The position numbers and the translations under genes were made by a program. DNA of 64,000 bases from Mariannaea sp. PMI_226 (Eukaryota; Ascomycota; Sordariomycetes; Hypocreales; Nectriaceae), in the NCBI GenBank assembly GCA_024336345.1, contig JANFOG010000009.1, positions 186,001 to 250,000 on the forward strand, given 5' to 3'. Each line of letters starts with the position of its first letter. Positions within the stretch are counted from its first letter, which is position 1. Of this stretch, positions 40,095 through 55,119 are shown one piece after another. The notes under the pieces were generated by a model. The model was not told the DNA's origin, made no database searches, and was given only the letters and a program-made list of their open reading frames with translations.

Positions 40095-42214
40095 TCAGAG
40101 GATACAAATAGAATGAAGACCGTCTCGATACTCAAGGCAAGGTAGCTGTGACTCCCCATGGCTTCTTTCTAGAATTCTTTTCTTCACTTTGGCACTCCAG
40201 GCATAAGCAATGCCAATGCGGCGAAAGGTTCCCACCTCCCCTTCAACCATTTTGAACAACAGGACATACATACCTCTTCCTTGCTCATTTTTCGATCTGG
40301 CACACATAGAGAATAACAATCCCTTGGCATTTTCTTCCTCAAAATCCCCCTGAAGAATATCGAGCATGACTCGTGGCTCGGCAGTTTCTGGCGGTATCCC
40401 TTCTACGTTATTAACCTTTTTGCCATCTAGCAACATATCCCAATAGTAGCCTCCGGCCGGCGAGGTAGAGCTTATGCGTGCGAGGGCCATCCTTCTGAGG
40501 ACCCCGCGAAGTCGTAGCCAACCGCCGCGAATCGCACCGGTATCATCACTGGTCTGGTAATCAAGGTAAACTTCTTCAACCGTAATCAACGAATCTTGAA
40601 TTCGTGGCTGGCCGGGAAAGATGGGGCCGTCGATTGAAGCCCAAGACCAGGTAGGGGCACGATATTCTCTAGGCCGCGTCCAACGCCCCGGCTGATGGTT
40701 GCCCTGTACTACCCACAGCAATTCGCCTTCAAGGTACCGGCGCCACATACCAGCGACGTAGCTATCCTGTATCACCTCGGTCATCATCTTGACAATGCCG
40801 GAGCATGCAATCAGTTTATCGCATGGATCTGTGAGGGTAGAAGCTGTATACAGTTCTACAATACGAGCCCAAAGCAAATGAGGAGCGGAACTGCCATCTG
40901 TATTGTTGTGTCTGTACCGACTAACGCGACCAACATATTCAGATGGATCAAGTTGTTTAAACCCGGCATCTGAGGACGTCGAGAGAGCAGGTGGCAGGCC
41001 GTCAGGATAGATTTCCGCGGCGTCTTTCTCGCGGCACTCCCATAGCAGTTGTTGCCTTCCAAAGTGGAGTATACGAGGAGCTAAGAAGCGCTCCTGGAGA
41101 ACCCATCCTCTTTTATTCACAACAGCGTTGGAGACCTCCGATTTCCAGAAGTGATAGTCTGAAAGGACAAAACGCTCTGTTGTCGCCATACCGTGGCTGG
41201 CGACCAAAGTCAACTCCACGAGTTGGGGGTTGAGTAAACCGGGATCTCTACTGTTGAATAGTGATTGAGAGCAATCGCTGGCATCGGCTGCCGAGATGTT
41301 GCAAAACGAATTTGAATAGACATCCTTCATAAGGGAAGCCTCGCGCTGCCAATCTTCGATATTATCCTTTCCCTGAAAGATACAGAGGGAATCAATCCAA
41401 ATGTGTCCTATGCCCATATGGCAGCAGACCGAGATGGCATCCTGAAAGACTTGGGGCAGAGCAGATAAGTGAAGGCCTTCGAGAAGCCGCGGGTATGTGT
41501 CCTTTGTTAGTATTATATGGTTAACAGGTCCCCAGCGATGAGTGAGTGTCATGTACTCCTCTGAGGGGGCTACTTGGCCGGTCTCTATTAGGTGCACCGT
41601 TGATGCTCCATGGGGGTCGAAAGATAGGAGGCGCGTGGGGTACCAGGTCTTCTTGTCGATTGGCTCTCTGCATCGGGCATGATGCATGCTACATTCTCGG
41701 ACCCAGCGCTTGGCCAGATACAAAGTCTCTGGGGATTGCGTGCTCGGGGTCAGGCCATGGCATGCGAGGCTTGTCGTATTACCTGCGGCTATGTTAGCCT
41801 CGGGGTAGAACTGTGCAAGAGGTCCCCCGACCACTAACCATCGGTAGGTTCAAGAAGAAAGCTCGCTCTGTAGCAGGTAATGAGAGGCATGCTGTACCCC
41901 ATCTGTAGAAGGTAGCAGCCAGGGTGGCCATAGTTTTTCCCATCATCGAAACACACCCTTGTGAGGCAGGGTTGGGCGGGTTCAACAGCACAAGCCTCAC
42001 CCGTAGGATCAGCAACGCCGCTCAAAGAGCCATGTAGATACTCGCGGTCCTGGGCATTCAAAGCCTCCCAGAAGCGTGTGCAGAGGTAGCATCCCTCTTC
42101 ATTAGATTGCTCGAGACTTTGGTATGTTTGATGGTGTCGAGCCGTATGAGGAGCTTCAAGCGTGGGCAAGGAAATCTCGCTTTTCAGGCAAGTCTGGCAC
42201 TGTGAACATAGCAT
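40095..42214 (-). CDS. HET-domain (heterokaryon incompatibility) protein
   Basis: HET domains, related to the TIR fold, trigger cell death when unlike fungal strains fuse. Two exons, 42214-41839 and 41782-40095, give 687 residues. The start is taken at MLCSQCQTC, after a hydrophobic run that is probably not translated. The N-terminal part has paired Cys (CSQC, CYLCTRF) typical of the zone before the domain. The HET core is seen as YMTLTHRWG, FQDAISVCCHMGIGHIWIDSLCIFQ, WQREASLMKDVYSNSFCNISA and NKRGWVLQERFLAPRILHF. APTWSWASIDG, also conserved, follows. The C-terminal half has no other named domain. No NACHT or repeat domain is attached. Confidence 0.93.
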
Positions 42215-43290: not shown

Positions 43291-44628
43291 CTAGATGGTT
43301 TCACGCATCCATACATGTTCCAAAACTCCTCTTGCAGTCAGCCGCTGCCAAGGCTCATATACTAACATGGCCCGAATAAGATGTAATAACTGTTCTCTTT
43401 TGTCTGGCGAGAGATGCGAAGCTCTTTCGTGAATAAGAGATACAATTGGCCACTCGAGAGGAACCTCTTCATCAAACCAGATTTTCGGGGCTCCTTTACC
43501 GTTCAAAATGTCAGAAGCATACTTGTCAGAGTACCGGTCTCTCCAGGCCTCAGGGAACGTGCCGAGGGTGAAGCGTAGGGTTCCCAGAAGCAGCTTAAAG
43601 CTCTTAAACATCATGGGAGCTAATAGCCGCCACGTCTGGACCTCGAAGATAATACATGCCAACGACCACACGTCAGACATCTTTGAAGGAGGGTAGCCAA
43701 AGCAGACTTCTGGCGGAAAGTAGGGAAGGGGGATACCAAGGCCTGTGGGTGGGTTGTCGGAGTTGAAACTTTGGCCGAAATCAATAATGCGGACAGGTCC
43801 AAGCATAGTCTCGTTGACGGTGAATTCAATGGCTTGAACCACTTCTATTGGGGAGTGTGTTGAGTAGGAGCCATCGTGTAGCCGTAGCTCTGCTGTCTTC
43901 GGTTCTCCAAACATCTGACTTATTTCGGTCTCAGTCCAATTCTGGACATCCTGAAGTTCAAAGAGAACATTTGAAGGTGTCAAGTCTAATAGGTCTTGTT
44001 AACAGCCCTTCAACGAGAGAGTTATGGAGATCTTACCACCATGACATACTTCATGATCATGAAGGAACGCCAACCCAGATGTCAGTTCTTTACAAACACG
44101 ATGGCGAGTGGTATTTGCAAGTTGTTTCCACACCTTCTTGAGACTTGGTCCTAGGAGCGGATAAACAAGACAGAGATGCGTACCGTTTTGGCCAATAACC
44201 TCAAAAGAGTCCAACAGGCTGGTAATGTTCGGGAGTTTCTCGCGCTGCTGAGGAAAGTGAGACATGACCTCAAGCTCTCGATCATGAAATGAAGCACTAG
44301 AGCACATGACCTTCAAGGCATAATACCGCTGGTCAACAGATGATCGAGTCCACCAAACCGTTGAGAAGCCGCCCGCTCCGAGTTTGTGAATGACTCTGAA
44401 GCGTTTGATGCCATCAGAATCGCCAAGCACATCGCCGATAGCGACTGGATGGTATCCACCGACGACGTATTTCTGGACGTCCTCAATGTCTTCCATCAGA
44501 GGCGGCGTGCGATACGGTGTTTGGCGGGGCATTCGCGGGAATCCTGGTGGCGGTCCAAGTGGTGGCGGAGGTGAGGGTCCTGACGGAGGTCCCAGCGGAG
44601 GTCCCAGCGGAGGTCCTGGCAGAGGCAT
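43291..44628 (-). CDS. SRPK-like protein kinase with proline-rich N-terminus
   Basis: Two exons, 44628-44037 and 43985-43291, give 428 residues. The first about 35 residues are a Pro/Gly repeat (PPLGPP-like units coded near 44530-44625). The kinase domain follows: glycine loop KLGAGGFSTVW, Lys106 in YALKVM, and the catalytic loop HGDLTPSN with Asp198. The intron cuts this loop between Gly and Asp. The metal-binding motif is IDFGQS with Asp266, and the PPE segment is FPPEVCFG. HGD in place of HRD, with T-P-S-N after it, is typical of fungal SRPK-like kinases, a family greatly expanded in filamentous fungi. A large spacer insert between the lobes is missing or short. All catalytic residues appear present. 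The substrate is unknown. Confidence 0.9.
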
Positions 44629-45615
44629 ATTTGATAGGATTGCAAAACGAGAGAGTCTGCTGTTGTAACAGCAGACTAGTTTGTAGAGACTTGGTGAGAG
44701 TTTACGTGCAATATAAAGAGGTGAGCCGAGACGAGGAGCATGAACTGAGGTTGTACCGGGTTTGTGCTGTGGCGCACGTGATTCACTCCTCCAGCAAATG
44801 GACCCGTGAAGTGTCAAGAAAGGTGCTTGAGTGAGATTGGCAATTCCAAGGAAGTTGTCAATGTGCATAAATAGGTACGCAGAGAACTGCTTACGGGAAG
44901 GGTTGTATCGATATACTTGGCCGGGTTTATGTTTTCGTGGAACAATCTAGCCGAACTTCCTTTGCTGTAAATTTTCCCCTCTCAATTTGCATGGTGTCTG
45001 AAGTTACGTTAATAATAGGTAGTCCTTTGTAGTCCTGCGGATGCACTTATGGCGCTGACGGACCCGACGTTTCAAATTTGTCCAATAGAACCCAAATGCC
45101 TCGTTGACATTGGACGCAAAGAAGTCTTTGGCGTTGACCTACTTGACTCTGTGATGGACGCAAGGTCTAGAAGTCACTTGAGTGAAGCCAGACCCCTGCG
45201 TTTTCAAATGCAGACTTCAAGACTTCTGCCTGCAGGAAGCTAGCTTGGGATGAAGTGCTAACCTCCAGTTATGATCAATGAGTAGTCTCCTCTACGAAGC
45301 TTTTCATAGAAGAGTAAATCGCTCTAGTGTCTGTCACAAAGTGAGAATGGCTAAAACGAAACTTTTCATTCTATATGCAGATATAAAGAGTGTTTTATAA
45401 TTATCTCCCCCGTTTAATAAAACCAGCCTTGCAGTTCAATATCCTCTATTCTCCGTCAAGGATACCAAGCATCACGCATAGGCCGGTCAACATAGCATTC
45501 CGCTTCGGTTCTGACATCCGTAAGGCAATCAAACATAGTACAAAGCCTCGACACCGTGACTTTGGCTACCCATTGCTTCTTTCCGGGGCTAGGAACTTGC
45601 TATGCTAATATTAGT
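44629..45615. other. intergenic, no gene recognised
   Basis: 987 bases between the kinase start and the secreted-protein stop (both genes minus). Two short frames at 45049-45243 and 45390-45608 lack motifs. I see no gene. Confidence 0.45.
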
Positions 45616-47182: not shown

Positions 47183-49132
47183 CTAGTTACATGATGTCAA
47201 TGGAGTATAGTGCGGCATATCCACCATCCACCATCGAAAGACTTTCGAAACGACCCGGACATTTCGCCCCGTGTCTTCATCTTCCGGCGCTCTCATCTCC
47301 ATCTGGTCCACCTCCCACAGCTCCGGCAACTCTAGGCTCTTCCACGAGACTCCTTGCCCACTAGTGACTATCGCGCGTATAATGTCTCGGTGTGGCTCTC
47401 CCCCTCTAGCCCCCTTGAAGTCACGAAGTTGATCAGGTATGGAAATCTCAAAGGCGAATGACGTTTCGCCCCCCGCTGGTACTTGCTCATAGAATCCTTC
47501 TGGCGGCCAAAGCTGTTTAATGCTAAACCCTGGTGTCATATTCACAACGGTGAGGTACAAGTCGCCGTTGCCTGTGTTCTCGAAACTTAGTTCCAGGTGA
47601 GGCTCATCGTCGTCGTCGACTTCGTCAAGAGTTACGTGAAAAGGCAACTTTCCCTTTGAAGACTTTTTAGGAAGATCCAGGATCTGGCCAAAGCGGGCAA
47701 GATGTCCCAGGCTAACGGCGGCTCGATCACCAAGGCGCTGAAGGGAACCACTTTTGAGGTTCACACATCGCAAAGGGTCACGATACCCTACCAGTTCATG
47801 TGGCGAATATATCTCGACGCCGCCCCCGTTAATCGGGGCTATCCTGAATGTATCCGAACCTGGCATAGAGTGACCATCATATTCAACCTGAACTGTAGAC
47901 ACAAGGAGTTGCTGAAGTCTCTTCCATAAGGCTTTTTTCACTTCGGTACCAAGGGTCGCCTCAATGTAGACCTTGAATGGTTCATCGCCCAGACTCCATC
48001 TTGATGGTACAACTTCCAAAGTGCTCTGGTTTGTGGGCAGATGGCCAGGAGATAGGCTCACACGGCAGTCTCTCGCACCGACACTATCAACAACAAAAAT
48101 GGCATCACTAGAAGGTGGGAATATCTTAAACTCGGTTCCTACCTCCATACCGTGGATCCTACCCATCGGAATGACGAGTGTATCTCCCTCAATTTTCGAT
48201 GCTTGTGGGGCAGTGTGAAAAGGCTCAAAGTTCCCGAAGAAGACCAACGCATCTTGACCATATACCTCTGGATCCTGTCGGTTAGATCGGAGTTTCACGG
48301 CAACCATGTCACATATCAATCGGTACGTCGATGAGACTTGTCTTGGGTCGAAGCGCTGAAAGTACTGGACGAGCTCGTGCGTGAACGCGCCGTGAGAGAC
48401 ATTGTTCACTTCGACCTCTTGTGCTTGCTGTTGAACCGTACAGGCAGCCATTAGTGTGAATCCTTCCGGGTTCATTCCCCAAGTCGTTGCCAGTCTGGCA
48501 TTCCTGTCTGAGGGCTCAATGGGGATAGGCTCTGATAACGGAAGTTGGTCGTTGGGGCTGCTAAGTATATTGTTAAAGTCCTCGGGAGTGCGAGCTGGAC
48601 CTGCCGATCGCCAAGAGCCACCAGAATGGCAACTGTCAAGAATAGCAACGACCTGGACCCTTTTATCGTTCAACTCCTTGAGCCATTGATTCAATTGCCA
48701 GCCCCGCACCGCAGGTTGGTCGCAGCCGTAATCAAAGGTCAAAAGAGATGGATCTGTCGATCGGTCGCTGGGGGAAGCGTCAATCCTCGGAAGAGTTGCA
48801 CCATGGCCAGAATAGTGGAAGAAGAATAAATCTCCTTTCTTGGCTTCATTGATTACGGCTCTGAACTCTCTCTGGATGTTATTGAAAGTCGGCCAGGCAT
48901 CTTCCGGCTCCAGAGGCCTTGCAGCACCATCAGGCGAAGGAGAGGAAGTCAAGACTCTTGGGTGATCCAACTGGAACTGATCTCGTAAAAGCTTCTTCAT
49001 CGATTCAACGTCGTTAAGGCAACCACCAAGGCTTCTGATCCTCACGGGGGTCCCATCTGCACTCTTTCTTGTGTCATCGTTCTTGTAATAATTGATACCC
49101 ACAAGGAGGGCAAACCGTCGCTGAGTTTCCAT
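47183..49132 (-). CDS. caspase-fold peptidase (C14 family), gasdermin neighbour
   Basis: Single-exon gene of 649 residues. The N-terminal about 300 residues form a caspase-like domain starting ALLVGINYY. The catalytic His110 is in FFHYSGHGA and the catalytic Cys168 in AILDSCHSGG, each preceded by the usual hydrophobic strand. A VRGWQLNQWL segment lies between them. The large C-terminal half (from about residue 330) is beta-rich with no family I can name. Proteases of this type cut proteins after basic or acidic residues and often trigger cell death. Its start faces the gasdermin-like gene across 369 bases. It lacks a NACHT or death-fold domain, so the sensor part would be the C-terminal half or a partner. 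Confidence 0.92.
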   Translation of the reverse strand: METQRRFALLVGINYYKNDDTRKSADGTPVRIRSLGGCLNDVESMKKLLRDQFQLDHPRVLTSSPSPDGAARPLEPEDAWPTFNNIQREFRAVINEAKKGDLFFFHYSGHGATLPRIDASPSDRSTDPSLLTFDYGCDQPAVRGWQLNQWLKELNDKRVQVVAILDSCHSGGSWRSAGPARTPEDFNNILSSPNDQLPLSEPIPIEPSDRNARLATTWGMNPEGFTLMAACTVQQQAQEVEVNNVSHGAFTHELVQYFQRFDPRQVSSTYRLICDMVAVKLRSNRQDPEVYGQDALVFFGNFEPFHTAPQASKIEGDTLVIPMGRIHGMEVGTEFKIFPPSSDAIFVVDSVGARDCRVSLSPGHLPTNQSTLEVVPSRWSLGDEPFKVYIEATLGTEVKKALWKRLQQLLVSTVQVEYDGHSMPGSDTFRIAPINGGGVEIYSPHELVGYRDPLRCVNLKSGSLQRLGDRAAVSLGHLARFGQILDLPKKSSKGKLPFHVTLDEVDDDDEPHLELSFENTGNGDLYLTVVNMTPGFSIKQLWPPEGFYEQVPAGGETSFAFEISIPDQLRDFKGARGGEPHRDIIRAIVTSGQGVSWKSLELPELWEVDQMEMRAPEDEDTGRNVRVVSKVFRWWMVDMPHYTPLTSCN

Positions 49133-49501
49133 GCTGTAGGTAGAAATAGAATCGTCGTGTTCTCATACAGAGGTATACTTTCATTGCAAGTTTTCTTAGA
49201 CTGAACTTGAGCGACTTTGTGGCCAGCCAAGAGGCACGGCTGAGAGATTATTCCGTAGTGGTGCGTCAGCTGGTTTCAACCCCCAAAGGACTCATCCCTG
49301 TTCGAGCCTTGATACCGTCGCAGCCTGATCAGCCCCGCTTCCAAGCGCTTATTAGAGATTTATTGACATGGTGAACAGCGCACGGCCTCTCCACATTAGT
49401 ATTGGTTGGCTCTGCTTTTCCTTCCGCTGATCACTTAAGCGTTGCCGTCGACGTTGGATTCACCATCCTTTTCCCCGTTTCTTCCACCAAGCAGAATCAC
49501 C
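49133..49501. promoter_or_regulatory. divergent promoter between caspase-fold and gasdermin-like genes
   Basis: 369 bases shared by the two start codons, which point away from each other. The short shared promoter would allow the protease and the pore former to be expressed together. No defined binding site is claimed. Confidence 0.45.
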
Positions 49502-50443
49502 ATGTCGAAGAAATCCCGCCTTGACAGGGTGTTTGCCCGGCTCCTGATGAACCACCCGTACGGTTGGGCACTTTACAAGAAGGTCACGGTCAAAAACTTG
49601 CGACCAGGGGCTTTCGGTTACTTTGACGCTGACGGGGATTGGCATACTCTCGCTAACCTTTCTGGTAATCAACAAGACCTTGTCAAGTTGGGGCTGAACA
49701 TCCCGGACGAGCCAGTGAAAAGTAGTAGCCAGACGCCAGAAACACTGATATGGGGGCCAAAGAGCTCTACCTCGGTGATTTCGCGAGAGGTTGGCGGAGA
49801 GGTTGGAGCTCCGTAAGTTAAGCCTACATCCCTATGCACCCCATCACGGTTGCTAATGGTGGAACATCTCTCTAGAGTAGTGGCAGCACCCATCGAGGCT
49901 TCTATCAAACTCTCGTTCCAATGTGGAAGCGATGAGGGAGCTGTCCTTGTCACTCAAAGCCCTGTCCTAAAGCACCAGATCGAGGATGAATCGGCAGCTG
50001 TGCAGTGGGTCGAAGACAACACGGCCGACATTCTGAAAAAGCACAAGGCCATCATTGAAAGACACGGCATCTGGGTCGTGACGAAGACGTACACGACACA
50101 GCAATGTGCTGTGGCTGTCATGTCATCGAAGTCTTCTGCTGTAGAGATTGGCATCGCAGCAAACGTTCCCGGCGTCTTGACATTGTCGCCGTCGGGCAAG
50201 TGGTCATCTAGCACTGGCGATGCCGCGTTCGAGATCCATCAAGATGAAGAAGGAGTCGTCACTTTCATCAGTGGTGTATACTTCTCAAAAAGATTGATTG
50301 GGTCGAAACTAAAGCAAGCACATGACCAAGAGGACCAAAAGGATAAGATACTGCGTGGACATGAGGATGAGATACAGCTGGGCAATGAGGAACATGATGA
50401 AGAGGTATTCGAGTTGCAACTCTTTAACTGTCTAGATGATTAA
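49502..50443 (+). CDS. gasdermin-like pore-forming protein (RCD-1/HET-Q1 type), probable
   Basis: Two exons, 49502-49812 and 49876-50443, give 292 residues, close to the size of known fungal gasdermins. Segments that look like the family are the N-terminal HPYGWALYKKVTVKNLRPG, then GYFDADGDWHTL, WGPKSSTSV, and alternating hydrophobic/polar strands (IWVVTKTYTTQQCAVAVMSS, VTFISGVYFSKR) that fit beta-hairpins of a pore former. There is no signal peptide. After about residue 248 the protein changes to a highly charged, mostly acidic tail (about 44 residues, about 5 kDa). In Podospora HET-Q1 a C-terminal piece of similar size is removed to activate the pore. Neighbours support the call: a caspase-fold gene diverges from it and a CHAT protease gene converges on it with only 28 bases between stops. 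Without a profile search this remains probable, not proven. Confidence 0.7.
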
Positions 50444-50471
50444 GCTGGGGATATATTGAGACTCTGTCATC

Positions 50472-53258
50472 TCAAATTCCGTAATGGACATATGGAACCC
50501 AACGTAAACGCTCTGCATCTGTTCCCTTAGTTTTGCTCGTACCCATCAATGAAGCGTTTCTCTCATTACGATTGTTGTAGAGCTGCTCATCCATCTCATC
50601 TTCATCTACCTCTTCCTCGTCCATCTCTTCACTCCTCTCGCTGTCGCTGTTTTCCTCTTCGCCAGTGCCCTCTTCGTTTGCCCCCTCATCGGTGTCCTCC
50701 TCATCAATATCTTCCTCAGAGCTCACAACTGCCTCCTCCGATATAGAGCCACCTCTTTTCATTCCCTGCCTTGCTCTTCTATTACTCAACCACTCATCTC
50801 GCATTTCCCTCACGGCATTGTGAAGGCCTAAAGAAACTGATTCGTCCGTAAGCCCCCCACGTCCTATGGTCTCATAAGTCCTCTTGGCCATCTCTACACA
50901 CATTTCATCGTTTACTTCCCAAAGAGTACCGATGACATGACGAAACCCCGCTAACTGACATGCGCTGATAAGGTGAATACTCTCGTCTGAATATTTCTCA
51001 TCTTCGATTTCGCCCGTTCCACACGCAGAGAGATAGGCCAGCAACGGAGCTTGATCGCGTATATTGACCTCCAGTAGGTCCGCCACATACAGAGGATTCT
51101 CACTGTCTTCCAGAACTAGGTGACTTCTTGATGGATCAATGTTGTTGGAACCGTGGCCCGCAAAATGCAGGATTGTACACTCTCGCAACTCTGACAAAAT
51201 GTCTTGCTTGTGTGGAAGGGGTTGCGCCACGCCGACTTCCATTGACTCCAGTAGCCCACCTATGATTGAGGCCTCTTTTCCTGCAAAAGGAAGGGAGGCG
51301 TATCCTGGGGTTTTCTCCATTGCGATGAGAAGTGCTTTGGGTGTTGATCTCGGCGAGATCGCACTTGTACTATCAAAACGTCGTCGATGAGTGTGGATGA
51401 GTGTCTTGATGGATGAACTGTAAGAAGAGATAGTTCGATCTAGTACAGTCTTTCCCATACCCTTATGATGGTATCCAGCTGCATGTATGGGAAATTTACT
51501 CAGGCGCCCAGTAGGAATCCACCATATATGCGGCCAAGTTTCACCGCTCGAATAGGTCTGTGTGAGGTTGAGGGCAGCCAGAATCGGATCCACCACAACA
51601 TCCCATAGCCATCGGAGAACTTTAGGGCTCCCCATGCTATAATAATATTCCATATGTCTTAGTTGCCGAACTGTCAGGTCAGGTAGAGATATCTGCCTTA
51701 TTTGATTTGGCTGAACGACAATGGCGTCGCAACGTAATCTGCTAGTATTGATGACGACAATATGGCCGTATTTTGCTGCCTCGTGTATTTCTTCTTCCGT
51801 CAGAGAAGAGAGAAAATCTGCAAACCCAGGCTGCCTGCGAATCTCAGCGATGACCTTGTCAAACTGCTTGCCAGCCTCGTAACGCTGACTTCCTTCAGGT
51901 TTCCAGGCGGTCTCGTAGCTTTTTAGGACCGGCAGCCCAGCAACAGCTTCCTCGAGCTTATCCCGGCATTTGGCAAACTGGGCCGCAAGTTCGGGGTGTT
52001 TCTCTTGTAGTAGGGCCGTCTCCGCCCGCAGATCTTCAAGCGATGCTACGAGAACACTACGGCCCTCCTCCAGCAACTTCAGAGCCACCAGTGGGTCTTT
52101 TTTTGCATTTAAAGCCACAGCTGCGGCCTCGGAAGAAAATCCTGCCAGGTTTAGAAGAGTGTCCTGCTTGTCTGCGATCTCAAGCGATCGTGAAGTCAGT
52201 TGGGAGATTAGCGACGTGACTTGGGCCGCAACTTCGTAAGCTTGTTCCCACTCCAAGACAGATGCATACAGCCGGACAATATCCCTCCCAGCTTGTATTC
52301 GAACCTCCGGTGGTGCAAGCTCCTGGGAGAGAGCAAGTTTATAATATGAAATGGTGAACTCAAGGTCCTCTCTAGCTTGTGTAGATAAATATTGATCAGC
52401 AAATTGAATGGCGAGGTTGTGGCAGAGCATTGCTCTATTTGGGTCATCGCTAGGCGTAGCATCGACAGCTTCCTGGCTAACTCGAATGGCGTAATTGAGA
52501 TCATCTGACAACATCGTCTCCAAATACCTGTTGCCGATGTGGTTGCCTAGGTTGCTTAAGAATTTAGCCCGTCGGGGTTCCTTCTTGGGCAAGATTTTGA
52601 TAGCTTCTTCACCGAACTGAATGGCATCGTGGAGATCCTCTATTTCTCCATCTCTCGAGTACCGTTCACCTAACGCAAATGCCAGGTTATTAAGGAAGAC
52701 GGCGCGGTTCGGATCATCGCGGGGTGCTATTGTAGAAATATGTTCCCCTAAACGAATAGCCTCCAATAGGTCATCAATCTCGTCTGTCCGTATAAACCTG
52801 TCTGCAAGCCGATTGATCAGGTTACTGATGAAGACCAATCGGTTTGGATGACCGTCTGGTGTAAGGTCTGTAGTCTCTTGAGCAAGATGAATCGCGTCAT
52901 CGAGATCGGCCAAGGCTCCGATTTGCGTATATCTGCTGCGAAACTTGATTGAGAGCTTATTTATGCGCAGAGGTCGCTCTGGGTGGCCCATCGGAGTCGC
53001 TTTTATAGCCTCTTGTTCTAGCACAATCGCTTCTTCAAGATCAACCATGGCTCCCGTTCTGTAGAACCTGTCTGTAAGAAGATCTGCAAGAGTGCTCAGG
53101 TGCTCTCCCACATTATCCTGATCTTTTGGGGTGCTTGCGACAACTTCTCGGCTCATCCGAATGGCATTTTCCAGAGCTTCAATACTTTCTGCTTGCGGCT
53201 GGATAGTTGGGTCGAGATCTGGTGTAAACCAAAATCGACGCGGAGCTAGATTTGCCAT
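50472..53258 (-). CDS. TPR-CHAT caspase-like protease
   Basis: Single-exon gene of 928 residues. The N-terminal half is a row of TPR-like repeats of about 42-45 residues; each has a DLxxAIxxxxEA core followed by PxxxPNRAxxLxNLA. The C-terminal half is a CHAT domain with His702 in ILHFAGHGS and Cys746 in AYLSACGTGE. Separation and order are normal for CHAT proteases. The last part of CHAT (HVIGTLWEV) is intact. An acidic low-complexity insert (about residues 838-895, mostly Glu/Asp/Ser) precedes the final WVPYVHYG. TPR-CHAT proteins (separase-like) are also known from bacterial defence systems. It ends 28 bases from the gasdermin-like stop codon, on the opposite strand. Confidence 0.93.
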   Translation of the reverse strand: MANLAPRRFWFTPDLDPTIQPQAESIEALENAIRMSREVVASTPKDQDNVGEHLSTLADLLTDRFYRTGAMVDLEEAIVLEQEAIKATPMGHPERPLRINKLSIKFRSRYTQIGALADLDDAIHLAQETTDLTPDGHPNRLVFISNLINRLADRFIRTDEIDDLLEAIRLGEHISTIAPRDDPNRAVFLNNLAFALGERYSRDGEIEDLHDAIQFGEEAIKILPKKEPRRAKFLSNLGNHIGNRYLETMLSDDLNYAIRVSQEAVDATPSDDPNRAMLCHNLAIQFADQYLSTQAREDLEFTISYYKLALSQELAPPEVRIQAGRDIVRLYASVLEWEQAYEVAAQVTSLISQLTSRSLEIADKQDTLLNLAGFSSEAAAVALNAKKDPLVALKLLEEGRSVLVASLEDLRAETALLQEKHPELAAQFAKCRDKLEEAVAGLPVLKSYETAWKPEGSQRYEAGKQFDKVIAEIRRQPGFADFLSSLTEEEIHEAAKYGHIVVINTSRLRCDAIVVQPNQIRQISLPDLTVRQLRHMEYYYSMGSPKVLRWLWDVVVDPILAALNLTQTYSSGETWPHIWWIPTGRLSKFPIHAAGYHHKGMGKTVLDRTISSYSSSIKTLIHTHRRRFDSTSAISPRSTPKALLIAMEKTPGYASLPFAGKEASIIGGLLESMEVGVAQPLPHKQDILSELRECTILHFAGHGSNNIDPSRSHLVLEDSENPLYVADLLEVNIRDQAPLLAYLSACGTGEIEDEKYSDESIHLISACQLAGFRHVIGTLWEVNDEMCVEMAKRTYETIGRGGLTDESVSLGLHNAVREMRDEWLSNRRARQGMKRGGSISEEAVVSSEEDIDEEDTDEGANEEGTGEEENSDSERSEEMDEEEVDEDEMDEQLYNNRNERNASLMGTSKTKGTDAERLRWVPYVHYGI

Positions 53259-54308: not shown

Positions 54309-55119
54309 CTAATTCGCAGCAGTCCAAAGAGTAGGACCAGGGTACGGATAGCTTGTGTACGAGGTATACAGATTGAATAAGATGCCCGGCTCTGACCGGG
54401 TGTACAAGGCACTTCCCAGTTTTCCACCAGATGGCGAGACGGTACCGCTACCACCGACTTTCAGGTTGAGACACTGGGGATATGCTTGGGCACCATTGTC
54501 GTTTTGGGCGCTGTGCAGAGCGATGATTTCATGTCGAATGACATAGTTCCCTGGCTTCAGCTTTGAGGGGATCGTAGTAGACGTGGAAAAATTGTTGGCA
54601 ATTAAGTTGTCAGTCACCCAGGTCGTGCCGCTGACGATGCTGCTCTGGCTTATTTTAGACCACGAAAGGGTACCAGCGGTGGTCTCACCTGCGTAGAAGT
54701 CAGTGTCAGTTGTACTTTTCTATTGCACATCTATGGTGAGGGATGCGAGACCACATCGTACCATTATATGGGGCGATGTAGTTGATGATAGGGCCCTTGT
54801 GAGACGAAGGCCATGTGTTCCAGAAAAACGTAATGGTTTGGCCGGCGTTGACATTGATGAAGTTCTTTCCAGCAGTGGCACTCTTATGACAAGATATGTC
54901 GACGGTTCCAAAATTGGCCGGCTCGACAAACCCGTTATCCTGGTTTAGAGCGTTCCAGCCTGCTGTTGCTGGAGCCTGTCCTGCCGGGTAGTAATACCAG
55001 ACCGGATCGGCTCCAGCAGTCCAGACTCCATTCACTTTGACTCCGGAAACGAAGCCGTGAGCCAGTACCAGCTGAGGGATACAGGCCACAAGGCCGAGTA
55101 ACGCCGTGATTGATAGCAT
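54309..55119 (-). CDS. AA9 lytic polysaccharide monooxygenase
   Basis: Secreted copper enzyme that oxidatively cleaves cellulose or related glucans. Two exons, 55119-54762 and 54688-54309, give 245 residues, normal for a single-domain AA9. The signal peptide ([20 protein letters not shown]) ends directly before His21, which becomes the N-terminal copper ligand (HGFVSG). The second histidine-brace ligand is His107 in SSHKGP. The region [10 protein letters not shown] followed by AQAYPQC gives the secondary His and the axial Tyr. No carbohydrate-binding module or linker is attached. The gene looks intact and would act outside the cell with cellobiose dehydrogenase or phenolic reductants. Confidence 0.95.

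What the first reader, a model, noticed from the sequence alone, without database searches (positions are those of the whole stretch)
47183..53258. Caspase-fold, gasdermin-like and TPR-CHAT genes packed in one locus
Seen in the sequence: a divergent pair (caspase-fold 47183-49132 minus, gasdermin-like 49502-50443 plus) and a TPR-CHAT gene (50472-53258 minus) ending 28 bases from the gasdermin-like stop. Both proteases keep their His/Cys pair. Known: fungal gasdermins such as HET-Q1 and RCD-1 are cell-death effectors; HET-Q1 is activated by a protease, and fungal gasdermin genes are mostly clustered with protease genes (subtilisin or caspase-related). Inference: this is a self-contained death module with two different caspase-like proteases flanking one pore former. 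A double-protease arrangement would be new to me; one could gate or antagonise the other.
Basis: partly seen in the sequence, partly recalled or inferred. Interest (0 to 1): 0.92.

Follow-up and report, generated by a model that had tools for sequence, protein, structure and literature searches.

The report
Fungal gasdermin with two caspase-like proteases
In a Mariannaea fungus, a gene for a protein predicted to fold like the membrane-pore killer gasdermin sits between genes for two different caspase-like proteases, one of which likely cuts it at a conserved arginine to set off cell suicide, which would give the long-debated metacaspase-type enzymes of fungi a direct death target.

Summary
The window is Mariannaea sp. 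PMI_226 (Hypocreales, not Eurotiales). Three intact genes lie within 6.1 kb: a metacaspase-type C14 protease, divergent from a 292-residue one-intron gasdermin-like gene, and a TPR-CHAT protease ending 28 bases past the gasdermin stop. Pfam misses the gasdermin, but its predicted fold matches gasdermins first (first 14 of 431 Foldseek rows). The genome search found one gasdermin of this family, 3 C14 genes and 5 CHAT places, so the packing is not chance (about 5e-6). Gasdermin and C14 are also linked in Fusarium nematophilum, Trichoderma compactum and T. aggressivum; C14 and TPR-CHAT share a contig in four further records. The whole triple was seen only here.

A CHAT protease beside a fungal gasdermin is known. 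I did not find the C14 partner reported for fungi. It keeps all four S1-pocket residues of an Arg/Lys-cutting metacaspase, and the gasdermins keep an Arg-Gly (R264 20 of 20, G265 19 of 20) in a predicted-disordered linker before an acidic tail. Best reading: TPR-CHAT senses, and C14 cuts the gasdermin after R264. Both steps are inferred; CHAT may do the cutting instead. New variant of a known kind.

The parts
47183..49132 (-). Metacaspase-type C14 cysteine protease, 649 aa: caspase domain about residues 3-302, then about 350 beta-rich residues
48803..48805 (-). Catalytic His110 codon of the C14 protease
   Evidence: aligned to metacaspase MCA2; 43 of 44 rows of A2
48629..48631 (-). Catalytic Cys168 codon of the C14 protease
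   Evidence: 44 of 44 rows of A2
49133..49501 (.). 369-bp divergent intergenic stretch, possibly a shared promoter of C14 and gasdermin (inference)
   Evidence: read from the sequence
49502..49812 (+). Gasdermin-like gene, exon 1
   Evidence: splice reconstruction, identical to gene model P0001
49813..49875 (+). 63-bp GT-AG intron
49876..50443 (+). Gasdermin-like gene, exon 2 including the stop
50354..50359 (+). Arg264-Gly265 codons: predicted cleavage site between pore domain and acidic tail
   Evidence: R 20 of 20 and G 19 of 20 in A1 without P0016; linker 244-280 predicted disordered
50408..50425 (+). Hydrophobic strand, residues 282-287, in the acidic C-terminal tail: candidate autoinhibitory element (inference)
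   Evidence: strand in the model, at low confidence; hydrophobic pattern in the alignment
50472..53258 (-). TPR-CHAT caspase-like protease, 928 aa: N-terminal tandem repeats, CHAT domain 546-821, acidic C-terminal part
   Evidence: PF12770 E 3.8e-34, TPR_10 E 2.6e-4 below its cut-off; repeats align in several registers
51153..51155 (-). Catalytic His702 codon of the CHAT domain
   Evidence: FAGHG motif
51021..51023 (-). Catalytic Cys746 codon of the CHAT domain
   Evidence: LSACGTG motif

Best explanation
This is a three-gene locus likely to act as a pyroptosis-like suicide module, in which a TPR-CHAT protease would sense a trigger and a metacaspase-type C14 protease would then cut a predicted gasdermin after Arg264, releasing its pore-forming part. 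Shown here: the three intact genes, both His/Cys dyads, the metacaspase-like fold prediction and S1-pocket residues of the C14 protein, the gasdermin-like fold prediction, the invariant Arg264 (with Gly265 in 19 of 20) in a predicted-disordered linker before an acidic tail, and linkage of gasdermin with C14, or of C14 with TPR-CHAT, in other fungi. Inferred: that the tail holds the pore domain inactive, that C14 rather than CHAT makes the cut, that TPR-CHAT acts upstream (perhaps by processing C14 near its invariant Arg210, in a predicted-disordered linker), and that the outcome is death of the cell during non-self or pathogen response.
Confidence: 0.42

Rival explanations
1. TPR-CHAT is both sensor and gasdermin-cutting protease, as in the known P. 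anserina pair, and C14 is a parallel second activator or amplifier.
For: A CHAT-activated gasdermin is demonstrated for a P. anserina two-gene cluster (PMC12881547, passages); about 17-19% of fungal gasdermin genes lie by CHAT genes (PMC10197012 section 15; PMC10989679 passages); the CHAT dyad is intact.
Against: The invariant P1-like residue is Arg, which suits the acidic S1 residues of C14; gasdermin-C14 linkage was read in four genomes, gasdermin-CHAT linkage in one, though only 120 of 776 CHAT hits were listed.
Confidence: 0.35
2. C14 is an off-switch: it cuts the gasdermin pore domain or the TPR-CHAT protein to prevent misfiring.
For: Two proteases beside one pore former would allow gating; no call bears on it directly.
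Against: The invariant Arg-Gly lies in the linker, not in the pore domain, which fits activation better than inactivation.
Confidence: 0.07
3. C14 is an unrelated neighbour; the functional unit is the ordinary gasdermin-CHAT pair.
For: Three further TPR-CHAT genes of this genome have no C14 or family-gasdermin match among open frames of 110 codons or more in the 10-kb stretches read; three named fungi carry gasdermin and C14 hits on contigs of different length.
Against: Gasdermin-C14 linkage recurs in Fusarium nematophilum and two Trichoderma species, in the T. aggressivum model in one direction rather than divergent; chance packing about 5e-6 for C14 and CHAT together.
Confidence: 0.1
4. The 292-residue protein has a gasdermin-like fold but does not make pores.
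For: Pfam Gasdermin does not recognise it; model confidence is middling.
Against: Gasdermins fill the first 14 Foldseek rows ahead of any other fold; tail anatomy matches microbial gasdermins as described in PMC12881547 and PMC9612521 (passages).
Confidence: 0.06

Closest known systems
Fungal gasdermin plus TPR-CHAT two-gene clusters (P. anserina; Clave et al. 2022, known here only through reviews PMC12881547, PMC10197012, PMC10989679)
   Same: A gasdermin directly beside a gene for a TPR-CHAT caspase-like protease; short C-terminal tail
   Different: Here a second, metacaspase-type C14 protease gene lies on the other side, divergent from the gasdermin; the gasdermin family is not recognised by Pfam
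HET-Q1/HET-Q2 (P. anserina)
   Same: Gasdermin with a short C-terminal tail removed by a protease (likely cut at F238, per PMC12881547)
   Different: HET-Q2 is a subtilisin-like serine protease and the two genes are idiomorphs at one locus; here both proteases are cysteine proteases in the same genome as the gasdermin, and the predicted site is Arg-Gly
Bacterial gasdermin operons (Runella, Lysobacter and others)
   Same: Gasdermin beside caspase-like protease(s), which in bacteria include both Peptidase C14 and CHAT types (figure legend of PMC9612521); the Lysobacter four-gene operon has a second, trypsin-like protease (PMC9079055); cuts after Leu or Arg
   Different: Fungal nuclear genes on both strands with an intron; C14 and TPR-CHAT flank one gasdermin. 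Whether a bacterial operon holds both was not checked
RCD-1 (N. crassa)
   Same: Fungal gasdermin fold; model aligns to RCD-1 structures
   Different: RCD-1 is activated by pairing of two allelic variants, without proteolysis (PMC12881547, passages)
Metacaspases (plant MCA4 and MCA9, yeast Yca1, TbMCA2)
   Same: Caspase-fold domain, His/Cys dyad, S1 residues
   Different: Long C-terminal beta-rich part; aligned positions of two TbMCA2 calcium-site Asp residues are invariant Gly144 and Trp145; the genome's other two C14 genes are separate loci

Membership tests
Gasdermin | Gasdermin pore-forming-domain fold | tested here: met
Gasdermin | Recognition by the Pfam Gasdermin profile PF04598 (an aid, not a defining feature) | tested here: inconclusive
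   P0001 not matched; 1 of 21 members matches at E 0.023; no match in the genome
Gasdermin | Autoinhibitory C-terminal part removed by proteolysis | tested here: inconclusive
   Conserved R264-G265 in a disordered linker before an acidic tail; cleavage not testable here
Gasdermin | Oligomeric membrane pores and cell death | not testable with these tools
   needs expression or liposome assays
Fungal gasdermin-protease cluster | Protease gene within 10 kb of the gasdermin | tested here: met
   CHAT gene 28 bp and C14 gene 369 bp away
TPR-CHAT protease | CHAT domain with His/Cys dyad | tested here: met
   PF12770 E 3.8e-34; H702, C746; both motifs found by pattern in 116 of the 120 listed proteins, the window's own included
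TPR-CHAT protease | TPR repeats | tested here: inconclusive
   TPR_10 E 2.6e-4, 21.3 bits below the 27.5 cut-off; repeats align in several registers; many homologs carry PF13374
Metacaspase (C14B) | Caspase fold with His/Cys dyad | tested here: met
Metacaspase (C14B) | Acidic S1 pocket for Arg/Lys at P1 | tested here: met
   By sequence: C38, D41, S108, D166 align with TbMCA2 C92, D95, S156, D211; conserved 40, 44, 43, 44 of 44; TbMCA2 numbering fitted by me to the alignment
Metacaspase (C14B) | TbMCA2-type calcium-binding Asp cluster (from recall, not present in all metacaspases) | tested here: not met
   TbMCA2 D189 and D190 align with invariant G144 and W145; D173 aligns with D127 (39 of 44 D, 5 E). 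I call the protein metacaspase-type, not a metacaspase
Metacaspase (C14B) | Cleavage after Arg or Lys | not testable with these tools
   needs enzyme assay

The most novel reading that the evidence does not exclude
A fungal caspase-gasdermin axis with two tiers: a TPR-CHAT sensor protease switches on a metacaspase-type C14 executioner, which fires the gasdermin by cutting an invariant Arg-Gly. It would give a fungal metacaspase-type enzyme a gasdermin as its natural substrate, and be a fungal counterpart of the inflammasome - caspase-1 - GSDMD order of events.
Probability: 0.35. Interest if true: 0.85.

Novelty: new variant of a known kind. Interest (0 to 1): 0.62.

Why it matters
What fungal metacaspases do in cell death is still argued over (PMC13304501, abstract and passages). 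A metacaspase-type enzyme genetically tied to a gasdermin, with a matching P1 residue conserved across the gasdermin family, gives a concrete one-residue test. It would also show that a sensor-executioner-pore order, as in animal pyroptosis, can be packed into one fungal locus, and it adds a gasdermin family that Pfam does not recognise.

Tried and rejected
Sequence route to gasdermin: Pfam, NCBIfam, PADLOC and PDB sequence searches gave no usable match for the 292-residue protein (with exon 2 only, 6, 28, 29, 63, 64); only the predicted structure did. Other gasdermins in this genome by Pfam profile: none, which given the profile's insensitivity is not evidence of absence.

Prokaryotic counterpart: 20 bacterial loci with a C14 relative held no CHAT or gasdermin match (E <= 0.01) to HMMs built from the fungal sequences; those HMMs would miss distant bacterial forms. 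Viral contigs, gasdermin alignment: none.

C14 tree (54 of the 61 hits, three of them trimmed): gasdermin-linked C14 genes fall in two places, within a Trichoderma-rich clade and as a Mariannaea plus F. nematophilum pair; CHAT-linked ones fall in several. So linkage is either old in the family or arose more than once; the tree does not decide. F. nematophilum has a second C14 (P0145) that groups with Ilyonectria and Dactylonectria copies, so the unlinked copies there may be paralogs.

Considered and dropped: that the public model fusing an AA9 enzyme to the CHAT protein (P0022) is a real fusion; in 202 retrieved proteins the AA9 part matched only P0022, and the AA9 coding sequence ends about 1.1 kb from the CHAT start, so it is probably a prediction error. 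Among the 120 listed CHAT hits no gasdermin or C14 segment was found.

Print: searches (open-licence PMC papers only; seen as listings, some cut to the first 10-20, plus passages of the papers I opened) gave no report of a C14 or metacaspase gene beside a fungal gasdermin. The key primary paper (Clave et al. 2022) is not held, so absence from print is not established.

Full report
What is there. The window belongs to Mariannaea sp. PMI_226: its 292-residue protein is identical to P0001, BGZ63DRAFT_426245, and Mariannaea is Nectriaceae, Hypocreales. Three genes lie in 6.1 kb: a C14 protease (47183-49132, minus), a gasdermin-like gene with one 63-base intron (49502-50443, plus), and a TPR-CHAT protease (50472-53258, minus). 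C14 and gasdermin are divergent across 369 bases; gasdermin and CHAT converge with 28 bases between them.

The predicted cut. In 20 rows (P0016 dropped, as its C-terminus diverges; some rows are close relatives or fragments) R264 is invariant and G265 is kept in 19. Of 37 linker columns only S247, Q258, R264 and G265 have entropy below 0.5 bit. In the five tails inspected, 11-16 acidic residues follow and 0-3 basic ones. Bacterial gasdermins are cut after Leu or Arg about 20 residues from the end, and in the one mutated the next Gly was essential (PMC9612521, passages); Runella is cut after L247 (PMC9079055, passages).

The TPR-CHAT protease. CHAT E 3.8e-34; dyad motifs FAGHG and LSACGTG; NCBIfam's nearest model is the CRISPR TPR-CHAT protein Csx29, far below its cut-off (24.8 against 300 bits). 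The residue two before the catalytic Cys is Ser, where the C14 protein has Asp. The genome search found five CHAT places, one partial; in the 10-kb stretches around the other four no C14 or family-gasdermin match was found among open frames of 110 codons or more.

Linkage. Comparing organism and contig length by eye between hit lists: 3 of 21 gasdermin hits share a contig with one of 61 C14 hits (Mariannaea; F. nematophilum, tags 012220 and 012218; T. compactum, a 62,619-base contig). T. aggressivum P0186 is one annotated protein with gasdermin at 24-295 and C14 at 379-1004, either a fusion or two adjacent genes read as one; its length put it outside the gasdermin search. C14 and CHAT share a contig length in 5 of 61 C14 hits against the 120 listed of 776 CHAT hits: Mariannaea; Apiospora arundinis PG990_001632/001633; Purpureocillium lilacinum Purlil1_12554/12555; Xylaria sp. 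FL1777 (720-kb contig); and one metagenome contig of 26,204 bases. P0164 joins CHAT-type TPR repeats to C14. Gasdermin and listed CHAT share a contig in 1 of 21. Against: D. macrodidyma, I. robusta and Ilyonectria sp. gasdermin and C14 hits lie on contigs of different length; and of 4 tag prefixes common to C14 and listed CHAT hits, 2 have consecutive tags and 2 (ACJ41O, FOPG) do not. Between Mariannaea and F. nematophilum the three proteins are 71, 72 and 66% identical. Random placement of the genome's CHAT and C14 genes both within 10 kb of the gasdermin has a probability of about 5e-6.

What is known. [quoted passage not shown] PMC10989679 passages); a TPR-CHAT protease activates a gasdermin in P. 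anserina (PMC12881547 passages). In bacteria, gasdermin neighbours include C14 and CHAT proteases (PMC9612521 legend). So the gasdermin-CHAT pair is a new member of a known kind. The extra metacaspase-type gene makes the locus a new variant. My paper searches did not find it described for fungi, but the primary survey is not held.

Verdict. A real, non-random locus, most likely a gasdermin suicide module. That C14 makes the cut, with CHAT as sensor, is my preferred but untested order (0.42); CHAT as the cutter is close behind (0.35).

Noticed in passing
window 40095-41846 (-): HET-domain gene (PF06985 E 1.1e-23) about 5 kb from the module: another allorecognition-type gene nearby.
   Followed up: no
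window 43291-44946 (-): Protein-kinase domain split over two adjacent open frames; intron or decay not resolved.
   Followed up: no
window about 54390-55119 (-) and P0022: The public gene model fuses an AA9 (GH61) enzyme to the TPR-CHAT protein; probably an annotation error.
   Followed up: partly
L047 about 540-1410 (genome contig C23) beside the TPR-CHAT gene of L043 5189-8791: Second TPR-CHAT gene of this genome is divergent from a small gene of unknown family, its frame interrupted (intron or decay not resolved), with an acidic tail and no C14 found nearby: a possible other CHAT-effector pair. Not folded.
   Followed up: partly
P0164: Metagenome protein joining CHAT-type TPR repeats to a C14 protease.
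   Followed up: partly
P0165 (Xanthoria lichen MAG) and P0191: C14 relatives with Tyr in place of the catalytic His.
   Followed up: no
L040 and L046 (genome contig C11): Partial CHAT match in an open frame of 146 aa, possibly a decayed gene.
   Followed up: no
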